A DNA stretch of 64,000 nt from NCBI RefSeq assembly GCF_036194065.1, contig NZ_CP108098.1:70079-134078 (forward strand). The letters are read 5' to 3'. A program made the translations under genes and the position numbers. Below, piece by piece: positions 19,243 to 30,039 of the stretch (its first letter is position 1; every line of letters begins with the position of its first letter). The notes beneath the pieces were generated by a model. The model saw only the letters and a list, made by a program, of their open reading frames with translations, was not told the DNA's origin and did no database searches. Source of the stretch: Streptomyces sp. NBC_00239. GTDB taxonomy: Bacteria > Actinomycetota > Actinomycetes > Streptomycetales > Streptomycetaceae.

Positions 19243-21547
19243 CCACCACGACCACCCGCCCCGGCCTGGCTGCCACCGACGACCCGTGGATGGCCCGGAA
19301 GATGATGGAGGCCGGATTCGGCGGCGCCGACTGCGACTTCCCGGACTGCACCAACGGCCGCGCGCCGCGCACAAAGGGCAAGCCGGGCCGCCGCCCAAGT
19401 TCTGCGTCCAGCACAACAACCCGCGCGACCGGCAGCTCGCCTACCGAGCCCGCAAGGCCCTGGAGAAGGAGCGCGCGGCCGCACCGGAGCCCGTGCCGGT
19501 CCAGCAGGCCGTAGCTCAGGGGGCCCGCGAGCAGCAGGTCCTCACGACGCTGCTGCCCAGGGTGCTGACCGCGCTGGAAGCCGTGCACCAGGGGCAGCAG
19601 GCCGGCGCCGACACCGCCGCGGTCGCCGCCCACATCGCCGAGGTCAACAGCGCCGCAGATGAGCGGGTCCGCCAGGCAGAGGAACAGCGCGAGGAAGCCG
19701 CACGGGACGCCGGGCAGGCCCGCGAGGAGGCAGCCCGCAGCGAGCAGGCTGCGGCCGACGCACACGCGGAGCAGCAGGCGGCGCAGATGGAGGCGGCCAC
19801 CGCGCTGCGCGAGGCCGCCGACGCCGACGCACGTGCCACGGCGGCCGGCGTCGCGCTCGACGCGCTGTCCGACACGCACCGGCAGCTGCGCGACGCTCAC
19901 CACGAACTCAGCGGAAAGCACGAGGAGCTGTCGAAGCGGCACCAGGAGCTCGAACGCACCCTCGCCGCCCTCGCGAGCGAGCACGGCACCCTTCGCACCG
20001 AGCACGGCCGACTTCAGGGAGAGGCCCAGGCGCTGCACGTGCGCGTGAAGGAGCTGTCAGGGGAGAAGGCCCGCATCGAGGAGTCACAGCGCAGCACGGC
20101 CGCCGATCTTGCCCGCGTACAGAGCGAGAACACCGGCCTGGCCGCCCGACTCGGCGAACTCGGAACACACCGCGAGGAACTCAGGGAGACGATCGGCCGA
20201 CTGAACTCCCGGCTCGACGAGGACCGCGTCCGGCATCGTCGGGAGATGGCCGCCCTCCGCGCGCAGCTCGATGCGGCCCGGCGGGCGGAGGTCGAACCGA
20301 CCTCGGCCGCCGGACACGGTGCCGGTCCGGCTCCGGCCGCCGGTCCGGAGTCGGGCGACGGCGACGGCGACGAGGACACGGAGAGCCTTGGGAACCGGGA
20401 GGTTCCGGTGGCCATCGTCGACCTGGGGATGCACGGCGGGGCGGGGTGGACGCTGGTGCGCTACGAGGACGATCACAGCGGCTGGCGGGTGCTGCGCGAC
20501 GGCGAGATCGCGGGCAGCATCCAGCCCGAGCACTCCCTGCACGGCACCTCGCTCCTGGGTTGGTCCGCCCGGACCAGCCACGCCATGCCGCTACGGCCAA
20601 CCCACGGCCAGAGGCACTTCGCCAACCGTGAGCAGGCCGCGGGCGCGGTCGTCCGAGACGGCCTGCGCCGGCCGTCCGGCACGGCGACGGCGGTGGCCGC
20701 CTCCTTCACTGCTCTTGGCGAGCCGGAACAGAATGCTCTGGTCGCCGCGGTGGTCCCCCTGGCCACCGCCACTCCGGAACGCGGCGGCAGGCTGGTCCGG
20801 CTTCCCCAGGCTGTCCGCGATGCCGCCCTGCGGACCGCGCTGCGCGTGCCCGGCGAACGGGACCTCCAGCAGCTGACCGCCCTCGACGCCGCGGAGCTCG
20901 GCCGCAGTAAGGACTCTCGGCAGCTGCTTCGCGCGCTTCAGGGCCTCGCCCCGGCTGATGCAGGGGAGAGCGGCCCGGTGGACCTGGGTACGTTCGGCGG
21001 CCGCACGTGGCGGCTGGAGCCCGACCTCGCCTATCGGGGCGGCTATCGCGTCCTTGCCGACGGCACCGAAGTCGGTGCTATCGCCCCGGTCCGACGCCGC
21101 AAGAGCGACATCGTCCGGTGGACGGCCGAACACCGGCGGCGGCCACTCGGTCGGGGCCCCTCCCACAGCGGCCGGAACACCGCTGCCCACGCCGTGATCG
21201 CGGCGGAGGGCGCGTGGGTGCCGCTGCCTGACCTGGACGACGAGACCTACCTGCGTATCCCGGCCGGGCTGCGCTCCAACCTTTTCGGCGCGGCCAGCCG
21301 CATCGACCTGCGGCGCGGCCGGCTCGCCCAGATTCAGCCCGGCGCCTACCGGCAGGAGCTCCACGCCGCACTCATCCAGGCAGGGCGTTCGGCCACCGGC
21401 CGGATCCGTGGCCAGCACCTGGCCGTCCTGCTCGACGCCGCCCGCGAGGACCTCGGTGCTGCTGGCAGCGCACCCGCCCAGCGGCTGTATGAGGCGCTCC
21501 AGCAGATCCGCGTCACCCTCCTGTCTGGCGAGGGATCCTTCACCTGA
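19239..21547 (+). CDS. Long coiled-coil protein with apparent frameshift near its N-terminus
   Basis: The natural start is the ATG at 19239, coupled to the RraB-like stop. That frame reads DCDFPDCTNGRAPRTKGKPG and then fails; the continuing frame picks up KFCVQHNNPRDRQLAYRARK. Joining them needs one extra base in the C-run at 19394-19396 and restores a Cys/Cys/Cys/His zinc-like motif. Then come ~300 residues of Ala/Glu/Arg-rich coiled coil (19.5-20.3 kb), and a C-terminal region with two related repeats: GWRVLRDGEIAGSI and GYRVLADGTEVGAI, each followed by a W-x-A-rich segment. About 770 residues in all. A structural or DNA-organising role like KfrA is possible but unproven. Confidence 0.6.
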
Positions 21548-21591
21548 GAGCTGGCGTAGGGGGCCGTGCCCCAGCCTCGGGAGGTCTCCGA

Positions 21592-21802
21592 TGAGCCTGA
21601 GCACGGTACTTGTCGTCTGAGCACGACATCTGTCGTACGAAGCCTTGACCTGGGTAAACGCCCTGTTCGGAGCGCCGCATGCCGCTCCTTCGGGAAGATT
21701 GACGACAAGTACGGTGCGAATCTGCCGACAGATGTCGTGCAACTTCGCGGGACGATCGCAGGTCGGACGGCCGGCGTACGACAAGTACCGTGCTCAGTCT
21801 CA
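21592..21802. mobile_element. Miniature transposable element, copy 1
   Basis: 211 bp beginning TGAGCCTGAGC and ending GCTCAGTCTCA. The two ends form 25-bp terminal inverted repeats with one mismatch. The element is flanked by the 5-bp duplication TCCGA (21587-21591 and 21803-21807). Sites of the form GCAC-N6-TGTCGT occur at the left end in tandem with a 20-bp period (21597-21616, 21617-21636) and, inverted, at the right end (about 21702-21717, 21725-21740, 21778-21797). There is no internal transposase gene. It lies just after the coiled-coil gene. Confidence 0.85.
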
Positions 21803-21932
21803 TCCGACCACCTTCAGCGGAGACATCAGACATCGCATCTGCTCTCGTGGGCGTGGGCGAATTTCCTACTAGGAAAAGATGCGTGAACAGCCGGTAGTCT
21901 GCTGCCCGTGACCACATGGGTGTCCCGACCCG

Positions 21933-22143
21933 TGAGCCTGAGCACGGTACTTGTCGTCTGAGCACGACATCTGTCGTACGAAGCCTTGACCTGGGTAAAC
22001 GCCCTGTTCGGAGCGCCGCATGCCGCTCCTTCGGGAAGATTGACGACAAGTACGGTGCGAATCTGCCGACAGATGTCGTGCAACTTCGCGGGACGATCGC
22101 AGGTCGGACGGCCAGCGTACGACAAGTACCGTGCTCAGTCTCA
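21933..22143. mobile_element. Miniature transposable element, copy 2
   Basis: 211 bp in the same orientation as copy 1 and differing from it at one base (GGCCAGC instead of GGCCGGC near the right end). Flanked by its own 5-bp duplication ACCCG (21928-21932 and 22144-22148), so it is a separate insertion and not a tandem duplication. It sits directly upstream of the gene at 22179; a GTG in its right terminal repeat (22131) opens that gene's frame. The 125 nt between the copies hold a TTTCCTA-C-TAGGAAA palindrome at 21863-21877. Confidence 0.87.
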
Positions 22144-22178
22144 ACCCGCTAGCAGGAAAGCGCAGGTCAGCGACGACG

Positions 22179-23000
22179 ATGCGACGCCTCCGCAAGACGC
22201 CGCCACCGACAGCCCGAGAAGCGCGCCCCGCGCGGCAGGCTCCCGAGGAGCCGCCGCGCGCATTGGCCGCCCGGCTGTATGAGCTGCACCGCGAGGCCAG
22301 CAGCGACGAGGGGTATCTGGAGCTCTGGCCCGGCGACCGCGAGCTGTTTGGCGTGCTCGGCTTCGCCCAGGAGCACGCCCACCGGCTCAAGGGTGAGGCG
22401 TATCGTGCGGCCGCGGTGTTGCGTATGCAGCTGGCCGAGTGGCTGCGCCTTGCCGCAGATCCATTCCAGCTCTCCGCGATCGACGATGCCCGCGCCAGCG
22501 GCACCTCGTGGAGGGAGCTGGCTCTCAAGCTCCGGTACCTCGATCGGCTCGGGGAGCCGAACGCCGGCAGCGCGATGAACCTTCGCAAGCGGCTGTACGT
22601 CGCCGTCAACGGCCAGCCCGGCGACCGGCGCCAGCCGCAGGTCGCCGACCTGATCGACCGGCGGGCCATGGAAGCGCGGCTGGCGGAAGCACGATTCATC
22701 AAGTCAGGGGAGACGCGCTATGCCGAGCTGGACGCGGCCGCGCGAACTCTGCTGAAGCACTACGCGGCAGGAGAGATCCGTTCCGACCCTGACGACGATG
22801 GGTTCTGGCTGGAGCAGCTCGCTGAGGTGGTCGACGACCGCCGAGATGCTTCAGAGCGCGCCAACCTGGTGGTGTACGTGCGGGGAGTGATCCGTGAGAC
22901 GTCCGCGTACGCCAGGAGGAGCGAGCAGCCGCCGGCAACCACAGACCAGGCGCGGCAGGCCCTGGAGGCTGCCACCGCACTCGTTGATCCGTCCGGCTGA
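22179..23000 (+). CDS. Hypothetical protein with helix-turn-helix-like segment
   Basis: 273 residues from the ATG at 22179. The frame also opens at a GTG at 22131 inside the miniature element, so insertion may have changed its 5' end; neither start has a strong ribosome site. The centre, AIDDARASGTSWRELALKLR followed by a repeated Arg/Leu helix, resembles helix-turn-helix segments in Streptomyces plasmid proteins. Otherwise helical and charged. A replication or maintenance role is possible from its place before the toxin-antitoxin-like and parA genes, but no family was recognised. Confidence 0.6.
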   Translation: MRRLRKTPPPTAREARPARQAPEEPPRALAARLYELHREASSDEGYLELWPGDRELFGVLGFAQEHAHRLKGEAYRAAAVLRMQLAEWLRLAADPFQLSAIDDARASGTSWRELALKLRYLDRLGEPNAGSAMNLRKRLYVAVNGQPGDRRQPQVADLIDRRAMEARLAEARFIKSGETRYAELDAAARTLLKHYAAGEIRSDPDDDGFWLEQLAEVVDDRRDASERANLVVYVRGVIRETSAYARRSEQPPATTDQARQALEAATALVDPSG

Positions 23001-24158: not shown

Positions 24159-24974
24159 GTGAGCACGATCGTCAGACAACGGAATCTAGAAGCAGCGAAG
24201 GGGGGCGACTTCCCGATCGCGCACACGCCGGCGGAGGGCTTTGAGCTTCCCAACGGTGAAACCAAGGTATTCGTCGTCGGGATGCTCAAGGGCGGGGTCG
24301 GCAAGACCCGCCTCTCGATGCTCATGGCCTTCTTCCTGGCGATGCTGGGGTTCCGCGTTGTCTTCATCGACGCCGACTCCACCAGCCAGTCCGCCCACCT
24401 CTGGAAGACGCGCGTGGAGGGGCAGGGCCAGAAGCTGCCCTTCGACATGATCCCCTACCCCCTCGACGACCTGGACCGCAAGATCGACGAGTACCGGAGT
24501 CGCGGAGACGTTGACTACGTCATCTGCGATATCGGGGGAGGCAATACGAACGCCTTCATGGCGGCAGTCCGTCGGGCTAGGAAGCTCATCATCCCCATCG
24601 GGGCGGACCAGTCTGAAGTCGACCGCCTCAACCCGACGCGCATGGCCGCACAGGGCGCGTCGACCATGAGCACCGTCGGCGGCTGCGAGATCTACGTGGC
24701 ATTCAACAAGATCGACCGGCGCCGGAAGAAGAAGTCGAACCAGTTCCGTAGTGTGCTGGAAGGCGAGGCTCAGGAGGGTGGCGCCTACCCGCTGTGCTTC
24801 ACCGAGATTCCGCAGCTGGCCGCCTACGCTGATGCCTACGGGCACCTGATCGACGACTTCGACTTTCAGGGGGAGTTCGAGATGCTGGACTACCTCCTGC
24901 ACGAGACCGGGATCTGGGAGTTCAAGCGCCTAGTCGAAGAGTTCGAAGACGATGAAGAGAGGGTCGAGGTCTGA
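24159..24974 (+). CDS. parA: ParA-family partition ATPase
   Basis: 271 residues from a GTG. The deviant Walker A KGGVGKT is at 44-50, with the signature lysine Lys44. Walker A-prime VVFIDADSTSQSAH follows, then Walker B-like VICDIGGGN. The N-terminus (about 36 residues before the P-loop) is too short for a helix-turn-helix, as in type Ib-like ParA, although the total length is moderate. It would drive plasmid segregation by ATP-dependent nucleoid binding. The next gene overlaps its stop by one base (TGATG). Confidence 0.85.
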   Translation: MSTIVRQRNLEAAKGGDFPIAHTPAEGFELPNGETKVFVVGMLKGGVGKTRLSMLMAFFLAMLGFRVVFIDADSTSQSAHLWKTRVEGQGQKLPFDMIPYPLDDLDRKIDEYRSRGDVDYVICDIGGGNTNAFMAAVRRARKLIIPIGADQSEVDRLNPTRMAAQGASTMSTVGGCEIYVAFNKIDRRRKKKSNQFRSVLEGEAQEGGAYPLCFTEIPQLAAYADAYGHLIDDFDFQGEFEMLDYLLHETGIWEFKRLVEEFEDDEERVEV

Positions 24975-27751: not shown

Positions 27752-28639
27752 TCAGAGAATTCCGTTCCAAGACCACGGCTTCGGACCGGATCGACCGCGC
27801 AGGCAGTCGATCCGGTGCTGGGCCTCACCGATCCATGCCTCGTTGCTGGCCGCGTGCTGGGCCGCGTACGTCGTCATCCGCAGCTCTCGGGCGCCTGCGA
27901 GGACGGGATAGCCCTCCCACTCCGTTACGTCGTACCCGTACATCGCACAGAACTGGGCGTACTCGTGCTCGCTGACCGCGCCTGTGGTCCTCGCGCGCAC
28001 CGCGGTGGAGACGAGATCCCACTCCGGAGGCCCTACGGAGAAGCGCTCCAGGTCCATCATCAGGACGCCGTCGACCGTGCGGACGATGTTGCCCGGCCAG
28101 GCGTCACCGTGCACAGCCCGGTCGGGGAGACCGGCCGGCCGTTCGGCCCAGGCTGCTGCGAGATCGCGGTGCAGGCCGTGCAGCCACTGCCTGTCATCGT
28201 CGCGGATCGTGGTGGCCGCTTCCAGCCGTTCCCTGATCCGGACGAAGGGATCGAGATACCCCAGTTCGATGTCCGGCGTCGGCAGGGAGTGGAGCTGCGC
28301 GAGGAGTTGGGCGACCTCCTGCGCGGAGCCGTGCTCCTGCGGAGGAAGCTCCACCCAGAAGGTCACCGGCCGGCCAGCCGCCTCGACCGGCTGCTCCACG
28401 TCGACCAGGCGGACAGCCGGGACGTTCTCCTGGGCGAGCCAACGTGCGACGCGCACCTCACGGGCCGCCGCAGCACTCTGTCCTTCCCGGGCGACCCGTA
28501 CGATCACCCGCTGATGGGGCAGCCGCCATATCTGGTTCTCGGCCAGGCGCAGAGGTTCCGCTCCGTCGGAGTCGAATCCGGCCGCGGAACATGCCTGCTC
28601 CAAGACGTGACGCTCAGGTGCGTCTGCCGAAGAAGTCAT
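27752..28639 (-). CDS. Aminoglycoside-phosphotransferase-like kinase
   Basis: 295 residues from the ATG overlapping the XRE regulator's stop. The APH/choline-kinase fold is clear: N-lobe QIWRLPHQRVIVRVAR with the likely ATP-binding lysine position occupied by Arg/Val, catalytic AVHGDAWPGNIVR (HGDxxxxN), then VLMMDLERFSVGPPEWDL supplying the metal-binding Asp of the D-x-E/D region. Substrate unknown; such genes are frequent near XRE regulators in Streptomyces. Co-translated with the regulator upstream, so a sensor or resistance role is possible. Confidence 0.78.
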   Translation of the reverse strand: MTSSADAPERHVLEQACSAAGFDSDGAEPLRLAENQIWRLPHQRVIVRVAREGQSAAAAREVRVARWLAQENVPAVRLVDVEQPVEAAGRPVTFWVELPPQEHGSAQEVAQLLAQLHSLPTPDIELGYLDPFVRIRERLEAATTIRDDDRQWLHGLHRDLAAAWAERPAGLPDRAVHGDAWPGNIVRTVDGVLMMDLERFSVGPPEWDLVSTAVRARTTGAVSEHEYAQFCAMYGYDVTEWEGYPVLAGARELRMTTYAAQHAASNEAWIGEAQHRIDCLRGRSGPKPWSWNGIL

Positions 28640-30039
28640 GCGGAAACAGTAGCGGCGATCCGATCCCGCAGCGCCGAAGCCTCCTGAATCGTCCGGTGCT
28701 TCGAAGCGAAGCGGCCGAGCTGCCGCAGGTCGTCGGCAGCTCGCCGGGAGGTGAGTCGGCCAACCTCGTCCAGGGCGTCGTGGCCGAGCGCCGCCGCCTG
28801 GCGAGGGTCGCCCTTGGCCATGAGCAGGGAAGCCAGCTTGGTCCGCGAGATCGCGCGGGACCGCTTGTAGGCGTCCGTGTGTCCCTTCACCGCTGTGTCG
28901 AATCGCCGGGCCGCCCGGCCCGGGTCCTGCCCGGCCAGGATCGCGAGGTCGAACAGGGCGTGAGCCGTGTCCCCGTTGTGCTGCGCCTCGTCGTAGTAGG
29001 CCATCCACGGCGAGTCTTCGGCGGGCCGGGCCCGGGTGAACGCTTCATCCGCGGCGCCGACGGCCGCCATCGTGTCGCGGACGTTGCCCATCTTCCCGAA
29101 GGCTCTGGCCCTCGCCGTGTGAAGCATCGCCTGCTCGGTCGGCGTCAGACGGTCGGAACGTACGAGCCCCTTCTCGGCGTAGGTGAGGCCGTCATCGGGC
29201 GCTCCGATCCATACGGCTTGCCGCGCGAGGAACGAGTACGTCTTGGCCCGCAGATGCCAGTCTCCGGCCTCCTCGGCGCAGTCCGCTGCAAATCGGAACG
29301 TCTGGGTGGCTTCATCGTGGTGGTAGGCGTCGAAGGCAGAGGCGCCGACCACGATGCCGAGTCGCGATACGGCGGCGAACAGCTCGGTTCGTAGGTATTC
29401 GGGGAACTGGGCTTGCAGCAGGCCGGCCGACCACTGCATCGCGCGGGCGGCCACATCACGCACGACGCCACCGCCGCCCAGCTCATTGTCCATGCCGCTG
29501 ATGGCGGTGGCCACGGCCAGGACCTGGTCGATGTGGGTCGGGTTGACATTTGTCGGGAGAGACAGCTCGGCGGGCGCGAAGACGTCGGTGAAGTTTAGAG
29601 GGGCTATGGCGGCGAGGCCGCCGATTTGGAGGAACGAGCGTCGAATCACGGGCTCATGGCTCCCAGGGCGAAGAGTTGGTTCGTCTCTGCCCAGGATGCG
29701 GCCTGTCGGCGCATGACCGTGCCCCTCCGCCCTGCGCGTGGAAGCCTTATCGGCATCAGCCCGGCTTTTATCGGCATCACGGTTACCGAAGGCCATCGGC
29801 CACGCCCGGTCAAGGAGCCCTCCCGTGCGAAGGACATCATCGAGCCGCTGAACCACGTCGCGACGACAGCTCGGGTACTTGCCCTTCTCAATCGACAAGA
29901 TCATGTCGTCGCTGACCTGCACTAACCGCCCCAGCTCCTTGGCTGACAGCCCTTGCTCCAGGCGCAGTCTGCGCAGCTCGTTCCCGAACCACTCCTGCGG
30001 GGATGCCCCCGGATCGAGCTGCTTCATTGGCTGCGGCAT
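28636..30039 (-). CDS. XRE-family regulator with TPR-like C-terminus
   Basis: 467 residues. The helix-turn-helix is at about 15-70 (LRLEQGLSAKELGRLVQVSD, ILSIEKGKYPS). A linker follows, and then a long helical array of TPR-like repeats (FRFAADCAEEAGDWHLRAKT, TPTEQAMLHTARARAFGKMG). This architecture is common in Streptomyces pathway and differentiation regulators; the TPR part may sense a peptide or small signal. It is coupled by ATGA overlap to the phosphotransferase-like gene and divergent from the ATP-binding anti-sigma-like gene at 30203. Confidence 0.85.
   Translation of the reverse strand: MPQPMKQLDPGASPQEWFGNELRRLRLEQGLSAKELGRLVQVSDDMILSIEKGKYPSCRRDVVQRLDDVLRTGGLLDRAWPMAFGNRDADKSRADADKASTRRAEGHGHAPTGRILGRDEPTLRPGSHEPVIRRSFLQIGGLAAIAPLNFTDVFAPAELSLPTNVNPTHIDQVLAVATAISGMDNELGGGGVVRDVAARAMQWSAGLLQAQFPEYLRTELFAAVSRLGIVVGASAFDAYHHDEATQTFRFAADCAEEAGDWHLRAKTYSFLARQAVWIGAPDDGLTYAEKGLVRSDRLTPTEQAMLHTARARAFGKMGNVRDTMAAVGAADEAFTRARPAEDSPWMAYYDEAQHNGDTAHALFDLAILAGQDPGRAARRFDTAVKGHTDAYKRSRAISRTKLASLLMAKGDPRQAAALGHDALDEVGRLTSRRAADDLRQLGRFASKHRTIQEASALRDRIAATVSA

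What the first reader, a model, noticed from the sequence alone, without database searches (positions are those of the whole stretch)
21587..22148. Two copies of a miniature transposon with perfect 5-bp target duplications and Mu/Tn7/Tn402-style multi-site ends
Seen: two 211-bp units, one base different, each with 25-bp terminal inverted repeats (24 of 25 match), TG at one end and CA at the other, and different flanking duplications (TCCGA; ACCCG). Each carries five sites GCAC-N6-TGTCGT: two tandem at the left end with a 20-bp period and three inverted at the right end. Known: 5-bp duplications, TG...CA termini and several asymmetrically placed transposase-binding repeats characterise Mu, Tn7 and Tn402/Tn5053-type elements, including Tn7-like CRISPR-associated transposons. 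Inference: these are non-autonomous derivatives mobilised in trans by such a transposase elsewhere in the genome. I know of no described Streptomyces miniature element of this type.
Basis: partly seen in the sequence, partly recalled or inferred. Interest (0 to 1): 0.85.

Follow-up and report, generated by a model that had tools for sequence, protein, structure and literature searches.

The report
Miniature Tn7-like transposon in Streptomyces plasmid
Two 211-base pieces of DNA in a Streptomyces plasmid are inserted, gene-less miniatures related to a little-studied Tn7-like jumping-gene family, whose larger relatives, several of them also lacking their own transposition machinery, carry passenger genes and often insert at one fixed spot beside a conserved regulator gene.

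Summary
Two 211-bp units (21592-21802, 21933-22143; one base apart) have 24/25 terminal inverted repeats, perfect 5-bp duplications and five transposase-site-like repeats (four exact GCAC-N6-TGTCGT, one ending TGTCGG). A sister plasmid (CP108397.1) has both sites empty: joined flanks match 323/325 without gaps, with one TCCGA and one ACCCG. Three further 211-bp relatives lie on two other replicons. In 5 of 5 close tnsB loci (one the query's own) the related right end sits beside tnsA-tnsB-tnsC; two uninterrupted loci add two tniQ genes. One 11.25-kb copy has both ends. Relatives of 0.8-3.1 kb carry only passenger genes; one retains a tnsA fragment. In 15 of 30 left-end loci the tip lies 27-31 bp beyond a palindrome upstream of one XRE-type gene: a fixed attachment site. 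So the units are MITE-like miniatures of an actinobacterial Tn7-like family. Not confirmed: a helper in this genome (no TnsB found), and an autonomous element with exactly window-type ends. Two copies 130 bp apart fit poorly with Tn7 target immunity.

The parts
21592..21802 (+). Miniature element copy 1 (211 bp), left end to right end
   Evidence: absent from sister plasmid
21933..22143 (+). Miniature element copy 2 (211 bp), same orientation, one base different (unit position 182)
   Evidence: absent from sister plasmid
21587..21591 (.). Target duplication TCCGA, left of copy 1
   Evidence: single copy in CP108397.1
21803..21807 (.). Target duplication TCCGA, right of copy 1
21928..21932 (.). 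Target duplication ACCCG, left of copy 2
   Evidence: single copy in CP108397.1
22144..22148 (.). Target duplication ACCCG, right of copy 2
21592..21616 (+). Left terminal inverted repeat, copy 1 (25 bp)
   Evidence: 24/25 match to right TIR
21778..21802 (-). Right terminal inverted repeat, copy 1 (25 bp)
21933..21957 (+). Left terminal inverted repeat, copy 2
22119..22143 (-). Right terminal inverted repeat, copy 2
21601..21616 (+). Putative TnsB site L1, copy 1
   Evidence: same spacing in the L087 left end (positions 10 and 30)
21621..21636 (+). Putative TnsB site L2, copy 1
21702..21717 (-). Putative TnsB site R3, copy 1
21725..21740 (-). Putative TnsB site R2, copy 1 (ends TGTCGG, not TGTCGT)
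21778..21793 (-). Putative TnsB site R1, copy 1
21942..21957 (+). Putative TnsB site L1, copy 2
21962..21977 (+). Putative TnsB site L2, copy 2
22043..22058 (-). Putative TnsB site R3, copy 2
22066..22081 (-). Putative TnsB site R2, copy 2
   Evidence: core at 22067-22081
22119..22134 (-). Putative TnsB site R1, copy 2

Best explanation
The two units are miniature, gene-less (MITE-like) relatives of a Tn7-like transposon family of Streptomyces whose autonomous members encode TnsA, TnsB, TnsC and two TniQ proteins. TnsB supplied in trans would bind the five repeats, pair the two ends and, with TnsA, cut the element out; TnsC, loaded on target DNA by a TniQ, would direct joining with a 5-bp staggered cut. 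Shown: both insertions with 5-bp duplications and exact empty sites; related end architecture on tnsABC-tniQ-tniQ elements and on passenger-only derivatives; other 211-bp units on two further replicons; a preferred chromosomal site upstream of an XRE-type gene for the family. Inferred: that the units arose by internal deletion, that a TnsB of this family moved them, the cut-and-paste chemistry, and that the second TniQ or another route explains insertions away from the chromosomal site, such as these on a plasmid.
For: Empty sites for both units in CP108397.1: joined flanks align 323/325 ungapped; length difference 432 = 2 x 216. Right end beside tnsA-tnsB in 5 of 5 close TnsB loci, one of them (L087) the query's own place. 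L087, 11,253 bp, has both ends. tnsABC-tniQ1-tniQ2 each matched in one run in L084 and L086. TnsA: NF033179 125.9 bits, cut-off 110. TnsC: TniB PF05621 over cut-off. TniQ PF06527 over cut-off. TnsB profile matches solved TnsB (E 1.5e-18), with D318, D420, E456 conserved (D420 missing in one of 10 rows; the triad assignment is mine). Ends of L087 align to the window unit above all 500 shuffles and all 3000 genomic stretches (BLAST E 8.7e-9 for RE within five loci). Perfect 5-bp duplications in 8 of 13 two-ended elements. L035 keeps a tnsA piece of about 55 residues, in two frames.
Against: No TnsB relative in this genome. No autonomous element with the exact window-type right end was found. The only two-ended autonomous copy (L087) has no target duplication (1/5) and a disrupted tniQ pair. 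Curated models see the TnsB poorly: rve below cut-off, Mu-transpos_C not found in G239, which holds it, IS481 and IS3 models far below cut-off; Pfam's TnsA model is just below cut-off (25.8 of 26.5). Full-length 211-bp units were found on only three replicons, five copies. Two copies 130 bp apart are unexpected if the family has Tn7-type target immunity.
Confidence: 0.88

Rival explanations
1. Miniature derivative of a different transposon with multi-site ends and TG...CA tips (Tn402/Tn5053 with TniABQ and resolvase, an IS21-type element, or Mu), with convergent end similarity to the Tn7-like family.
For: Such families share TG...CA tips, several binding sites and duplications of about 5 bp (recalled; PMC8649781 section 6 names arrays for Tn7, Tn5090, Tn5053 and Tn552). 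No autonomous element with exact window-type ends was found.
Against: Ends alignable over LE45 and RE103 sit beside tnsA-tnsB in 5 of 5 loci; the L087 left end scores 25 against a maximum of 3.0 in 3000 random genomic stretches.
Confidence: 0.07
2. Iteron or partition-site DNA of the plasmid (bound by a replication or Par protein) that happens to be duplicated.
For: The units lie about 2 kb from a parA-like gene (24159-24974); relatives L008, L009 and L032 also lie about 1.5-6 kb from parA-like genes (L032's by eye).
Against: The sister plasmid, with a ParA-family gene annotated in the same place, lacks both units; related ends occur on chromosomal-type contigs around passenger genes and around tnsABC; the duplications differ between copies.
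Confidence: 0.02
3. The second copy arose by local duplication or gene conversion rather than by an independent insertion.
For: The copies differ by only one base, have the same orientation and are 130 bp apart.
Against: Each copy has its own perfect duplication and its own empty site; the 125 bp between the sites is single-copy and present in the sister plasmid.
Confidence: 0.03

Closest known systems
Actinobacterial clade of Tn7-like transposons ('second clade' in Benler et al. 2021, PMC8649781; passages and section 6 seen)
   Same: tnsA-tnsB-tnsC-tniQ content, arrays of about 20-bp TnsB sites at both ends, passenger genes including defence systems.
   Different: That survey scans outward from tnsB, so by design it does not see elements without tnsB; the words non-autonomous and nonautonomous do not occur in its main text. 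Whether this particular family was in its data set was not checked. It says of that second clade that none had been experimentally characterised.
Tn7 and TniQ/TnsD-targeted Tn7-like elements (Faure et al. 2023, PMC10293859; passages seen; the rest recalled)
   Same: Fixed distance and orientation relative to a conserved chromosomal site, plus insertions elsewhere.
   Different: The site here lies mostly 77-81 bp upstream of the start of an XRE-type regulator gene; two tandem TniQ genes; miniature and passenger-only forms.
TIMEs, Tn3-derived miniature elements (Szuplewska et al. 2014, PMC4133298; abstract and outline seen)
   Same: Gene-less 262-bp elements on plasmids with ends of a large transposon, 5- or 6-bp duplications, and composite derivatives carrying passengers.
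   Different: Derived from Tn3-family, not Tn7-like, transposons; here the ends hold five separate sites.

Membership tests
MITE / miniature non-autonomous transposon | Short, no coding capacity, terminal inverted repeats, target duplication, empty sites | tested here: met
   211 bp, 24/25 TIR, TCCGA and ACCCG duplications, exact empty sites; lack of coding capacity judged from the length
MITE / miniature non-autonomous transposon | Ends shared with an autonomous transposase-bearing element | tested here: met
   Ends alignable to L087 and four other tnsAB loci, but only about 78% (LE) and 72% (RE, BLAST)
MITE / miniature non-autonomous transposon | Moved in trans by that element's transposase | not testable with these tools
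   Needs a transposition assay; no helper found in G000
Tn7-like transposons | Heteromeric TnsA + TnsB transposase on the relative that shares the ends | tested here: met
   NF033179 TnsA over cut-off (Pfam TnsA model just below cut-off); TnsB profile to solved TnsB E 1.5e-18
Tn7-like transposons | TnsC-type AAA+ ATPase and TniQ-family target selector | tested here: met
   PF05621 TniB and PF06527 TniQ over cut-off; order tnsABC-tniQ1-tniQ2 in L084, L086
Tn7-like transposons | Multiple TnsB sites at both ends, 5-bp duplications | tested here: met
   Five sites per unit (binding itself untested); perfect 5-bp duplications in 8 of 13 two-ended elements
Tn7-like transposons | Specific chromosomal attachment site at fixed distance and orientation | tested here: met
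   For the family: 15 of 30 left-end loci lie 27-31 bp beyond the palindrome upstream of one XRE-type gene; 0 of 16 right-end loci have their right end beside it. The window copies themselves are not at it
Tn7-like transposons | Target immunity | tested here: inconclusive
   Two copies 130 bp apart argue against it, but order and timing of insertion are unknown
Tn402/Tn5053 | TniA-TniB-TniQ without TnsA, with TniR resolvase and res | tested here: not met
   The end-sharing relatives encode TnsA; a resolvase was not specifically searched for
CRISPR-associated transposon (CAST) | Cas effector and CRISPR array on the element | not tested
   No Cas gene was recognised by eye among ORFs read in L087/L037 and L040; no dedicated search was made

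The most novel reading that the evidence does not exclude
In Streptomyces this Tn7-like family lives largely as helper-dependent cassettes: transposase-less units consisting of just the two ends, with one or a few passenger genes (NUDIX hydrolase, TetR plus oxidoreductase or esterase, methyltransferase) or none at all, the last forming an old lineage of exactly 211-bp plasmid miniatures. They are moved in trans into one shared chromosomal site beside an XRE-type regulator and onto plasmids, and they do not obey target immunity among themselves.
Probability: 0.4. Interest if true: 0.75.

Novelty: new variant of a known kind. Interest (0 to 1): 0.6.

Why it matters
The large survey of Tn7-like transposons that I read in part starts from tnsB and so cannot see elements that lack it. 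A family whose ends also flank single passenger genes, or nothing, means the mobile gene pool of Tn7-like systems is larger than so counted. The 211-bp unit is also a naturally minimal donor: five sites in 211 bp, inserted twice in this plasmid. Together with uninterrupted tnsABC-tniQ1-tniQ2 operons in named strains and a fixed chromosomal site in Streptomyces, it gives a directly testable, possibly useful, site-specific integration system for antibiotic-producing bacteria.

Tried and rejected
Iteron or partition-site reading: rejected by the empty sites. Helper in the same genome: TnsB protein search negative. PF09299 was also negative, but that search is blind to this family: it rang in 8 of 16 genomes yet not in G239, which carries the family's TnsB. 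PF08722 was negative and uninformative, since nothing rang in the control genomes either. Two TniQ-domain ORFs on C2 had no Tn7-like match or neighbour by tblastn. Plasmid TnsB relatives at 50-66% identity (12 loci fetched, of 2024 matching records) as parents: ends read by eye in the 10 loci printed are of other types (for example ...TGTCAC... or ...TTGGCC...), and BLAST of the unit against the 12 loci gave only one 21-bp hit (E 0.049). Phage and viral collections: no match. A clean duplication for L009, L008b and L087: not found (2/5, 3/5, 1/5). A first identity control was badly designed (its gapped shuffles reached 0.84-0.89) and was replaced by the score-based control; there L050's left end is weak (score 1.0, reached by 2 of 3000 background stretches) because its outer site carries a deletion. 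L032 was not in that control. L047 and L048 were looked at and judged chance matches; the short match in L051 was not followed up; all three were left out of the end counts. The nearest-gene part failed (it found no gene even where one is known) and was redone.

Full report
Observation. The two units are as described: 21592-21802 and 21933-22143, 211 bp, one difference (unit position 182), 24/25 terminal repeats, TG...CA tips, duplications TCCGA and ACCCG. The five sites per unit are real; four are exact GCAC-N6-TGTCGT and one ends TGTCGG. All 8 exact motif copies in the 64-kb window lie in the units.

Insertion proof. A search of the plasmid collection with window 20600-23000 gave 10 records, one of them near-identical: CP108397.1 (Streptomyces sp. 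NBC_01310, circular 125,561 bp; 98.7% over 83% of the query), whose match is 432 bp shorter, exactly 2 x (211 + 5). Flanks joined in a script align to it 323/325 without gaps, with one TCCGA and one ACCCG. Both units therefore most likely entered after these plasmids diverged (precise loss from the sister would be the unlikely alternative). They lie between two genes annotated as hypothetical on the sister; nothing is known about effects on them.

Copies. In the own genome: two full units plus one lone left end on the large contig C1 (L010). In 392 genomes of the window's genus (Streptomyces, judging by the named records that match), 21 have a match to the window unit at E <= 0.001, own genome included, 27 places in all, mostly to one end only; two places (L047, L048) lie in ordinary-looking sequence and look like chance, and a short third (L051) was not followed up. 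In a sample of 394 family genomes only the own genome passed E <= 1e-9. In plasmids 2 of 72,556 records matched (records very near the window's genome may be left out there); phages and viral contigs none. An 80-bp left end of L087 matched 33 of 392 genus genomes. Besides the two window copies there are three more units of exactly 211 bp: two identical ones on a plasmid of Streptomyces sp. NBC_00445 (L008) and one on G370:C15 (L032:9209-9419, duplication AAGCC 5/5, worn left end). The three types are alike throughout: 154/212, 141/214 and 143/213 columns identical. So the miniature seems to be a lineage of its own, not a one-off deletion.

Autonomous relatives. A 912-aa ORF with a DDE-type protein inside the right end of L037 led to five close TnsB loci (one, L087, is the query's own place), all with the right end beside tnsA (5 of 5): Streptomyces sp. 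SBT349 (L084), sp. ISL-100 (L085), S. spiroverticillatus (L086), S. sporangiiformans (L087 = L037), S. huiliensis (L088). In L084 and L086 tnsA-tnsB-tnsC-tniQ1-tniQ2 each match in one run; L088 has two tniQ but frame breaks; L085 is cut by the contig end in tnsC; in L087 the two tniQ genes look fused out of frame. L087 is the only one with both ends found: 11,253 bp, but without a duplication. Family assignments: TnsA NF033179 over cut-off, Pfam TnsA just below; TniB and TniQ over cut-off; rve weak and below cut-off; Mu-transpos_C not detected in G239. The TnsB alignment matches solved TnsB chains, one of them named I-F3 Tn6677 TnsB; that the best, 7svw, is the V-K ShCAST enzyme is recalled. 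D318, D420 and E456 fit a DD(35)E triad; D318 and E456 are invariant in 10 rows, D420 is missing in L072 (assignment mine).

How alike are the ends? Against window copy 1, the first 45 bp of L087 are 35/45 identical, and both ends align above all 500 shuffles and all 3000 genomic stretches (right end by BLAST 72% over 106 columns, E 8.7e-9 within five loci). Closest of all is S. canus plasmid element L009 (43/45; 89/103), which carries a DUF6228 gene, another small gene and no Tns match. So the window units form a sub-type whose own autonomous parent was not found.

Passenger-only relatives. L041, L042 and L045 are 781-787-bp elements holding a NUDIX gene, 88-92% alike, at three different sites with duplications 4/5, 5/5 and 5/5. 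The same left end plus NUDIX region is on autonomous L087, there split over two frames. L035 (2,364 bp) carries TetR- and oxidoreductase-like genes (TetR below curated cut-offs, the other by eye) and still has about 55 residues of tnsA, in two frames, beside its right end: direct evidence of internal deletion. L046 (3,128 bp) carries TetR- and esterase-like genes (by eye; esterase models below cut-off). L050 (1,431 bp) carries NUDIX plus what reads by eye like a methyltransferase, duplication TCCAC 5/5. Of 13 two-ended elements, duplications are perfect in 8, 4/5 in 2, and 3/5, 2/5 and 1/5 in one each. L040 (left end only; contig ends inside) has two open TniQ genes and a Lamassu-type defence system. 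Of 16 of the genomes with an end, 10 have some TnsB relative, but only 2 at 85% or more and 4 at 50% or more.

Attachment site. Of 17 left ends with flanks, 10 lie 27-31 bp beyond GCTTGCAA (one mismatch allowed) of the palindrome TTGCAAGC-N4-GCTTGCAA and 77-81 bp upstream of an XRE-type regulator gene. Of the 30 left-end loci examined (30 of 35 places; overlapping set), 15 do so, one of them with a degraded tip and 102 bp to the matched gene start. A few of the other 15 have worn tips and could not be placed well. The loci were picked by their ends, not their flanks. In 16 right-end loci the right end is never beside this gene; where the gene is in the locus (4) it is 863-11,330 bp from the right tip, so the orientation is fixed in what I saw. 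The regulator is ClgR-like by profile but far below that family's cut-off (48.9 of 170). In the own genome this gene is present with no end beside it. The window units, and about half the family, are elsewhere.

Mechanism. Shown: insertion with 5-bp duplications, related ends, operon content, fixed chromosomal site. Inferred from Tn7 knowledge: TnsB binding to the repeats, TnsA-TnsB excision, TnsC/TniQ target choice, action in trans. With no TnsB relative found in G000, the units are probably stranded here for now.

Anomaly. Tn7 strongly inhibits a second insertion nearby (PMC11406308, passages seen). Here two copies sit 130 bp apart; in L008 two identical 211-bp copies sit inverted about 1 kb apart. 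Either immunity is absent or weak in this family, or the pairs arose by another route.

Literature. Searches (open-licence PMC full text only; lists capped) listed no paper whose title or shown abstract start describes miniature or passenger-only Tn7-like elements, or this site. Benler et al. 2021 (PMC8649781: passages, section 6) describe an Actinobacteria-dominated clade, none experimentally characterised. The prokaryotic MITE review PMC10969869 names Tn7 only for attTn7 and a reference (passages). Szuplewska et al. 2014 (PMC4133298, abstract and outline) is the nearest analogue, in Tn3. Subscription papers were not searchable, so novelty is provisional.

Noticed in passing
L040:3133-7155 (G085:C147): Passenger genes between TniQ2 and the left end match Lamassu LmuA (E 6e-27), LmuC (1e-8) and LmuB (7e-93).
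   Followed up: partly
L008:8790-10211 (NZ_CP107915.1): Two identical 211-bp relatives of the window unit, inverted around one 270-aa ORF; that ORF region matches 7 of the 12 plasmid records listed besides its own, so this may be a composite passenger unit.
   Followed up: partly
window 21587-22148, L008, L009, L032: Plasmid-type copies lie about 1.5-6 kb from parA-like genes (L032's by eye); it may be chance or a target preference.
   Followed up: no
L009:8775-8803 and L045 just left of 9332: Sequence resembling, by eye, ends of another Tn7-like type (...TTGGCC...) lies directly beside these elements.
   Followed up: no
G000:C2:64998-65231 and C2:15049-15309 (L141, L142): Two ORFs with weak TniQ-domain matches, without TnsA/B/C neighbours by tblastn.
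   Followed up: partly
G000:C1:8405722-8405773 (L010): Lone left end in the own genome beside TetR- and oxidoreductase-like genes that resemble the passenger genes of L035 (90-97% identity); no right end found.
   Followed up: partly
window 27752-29008: Aminoglycoside-phosphotransferase-like ORF (PF01636, E 2e-24); a gene so named is annotated at about the same place on the sister plasmid.
   Followed up: no
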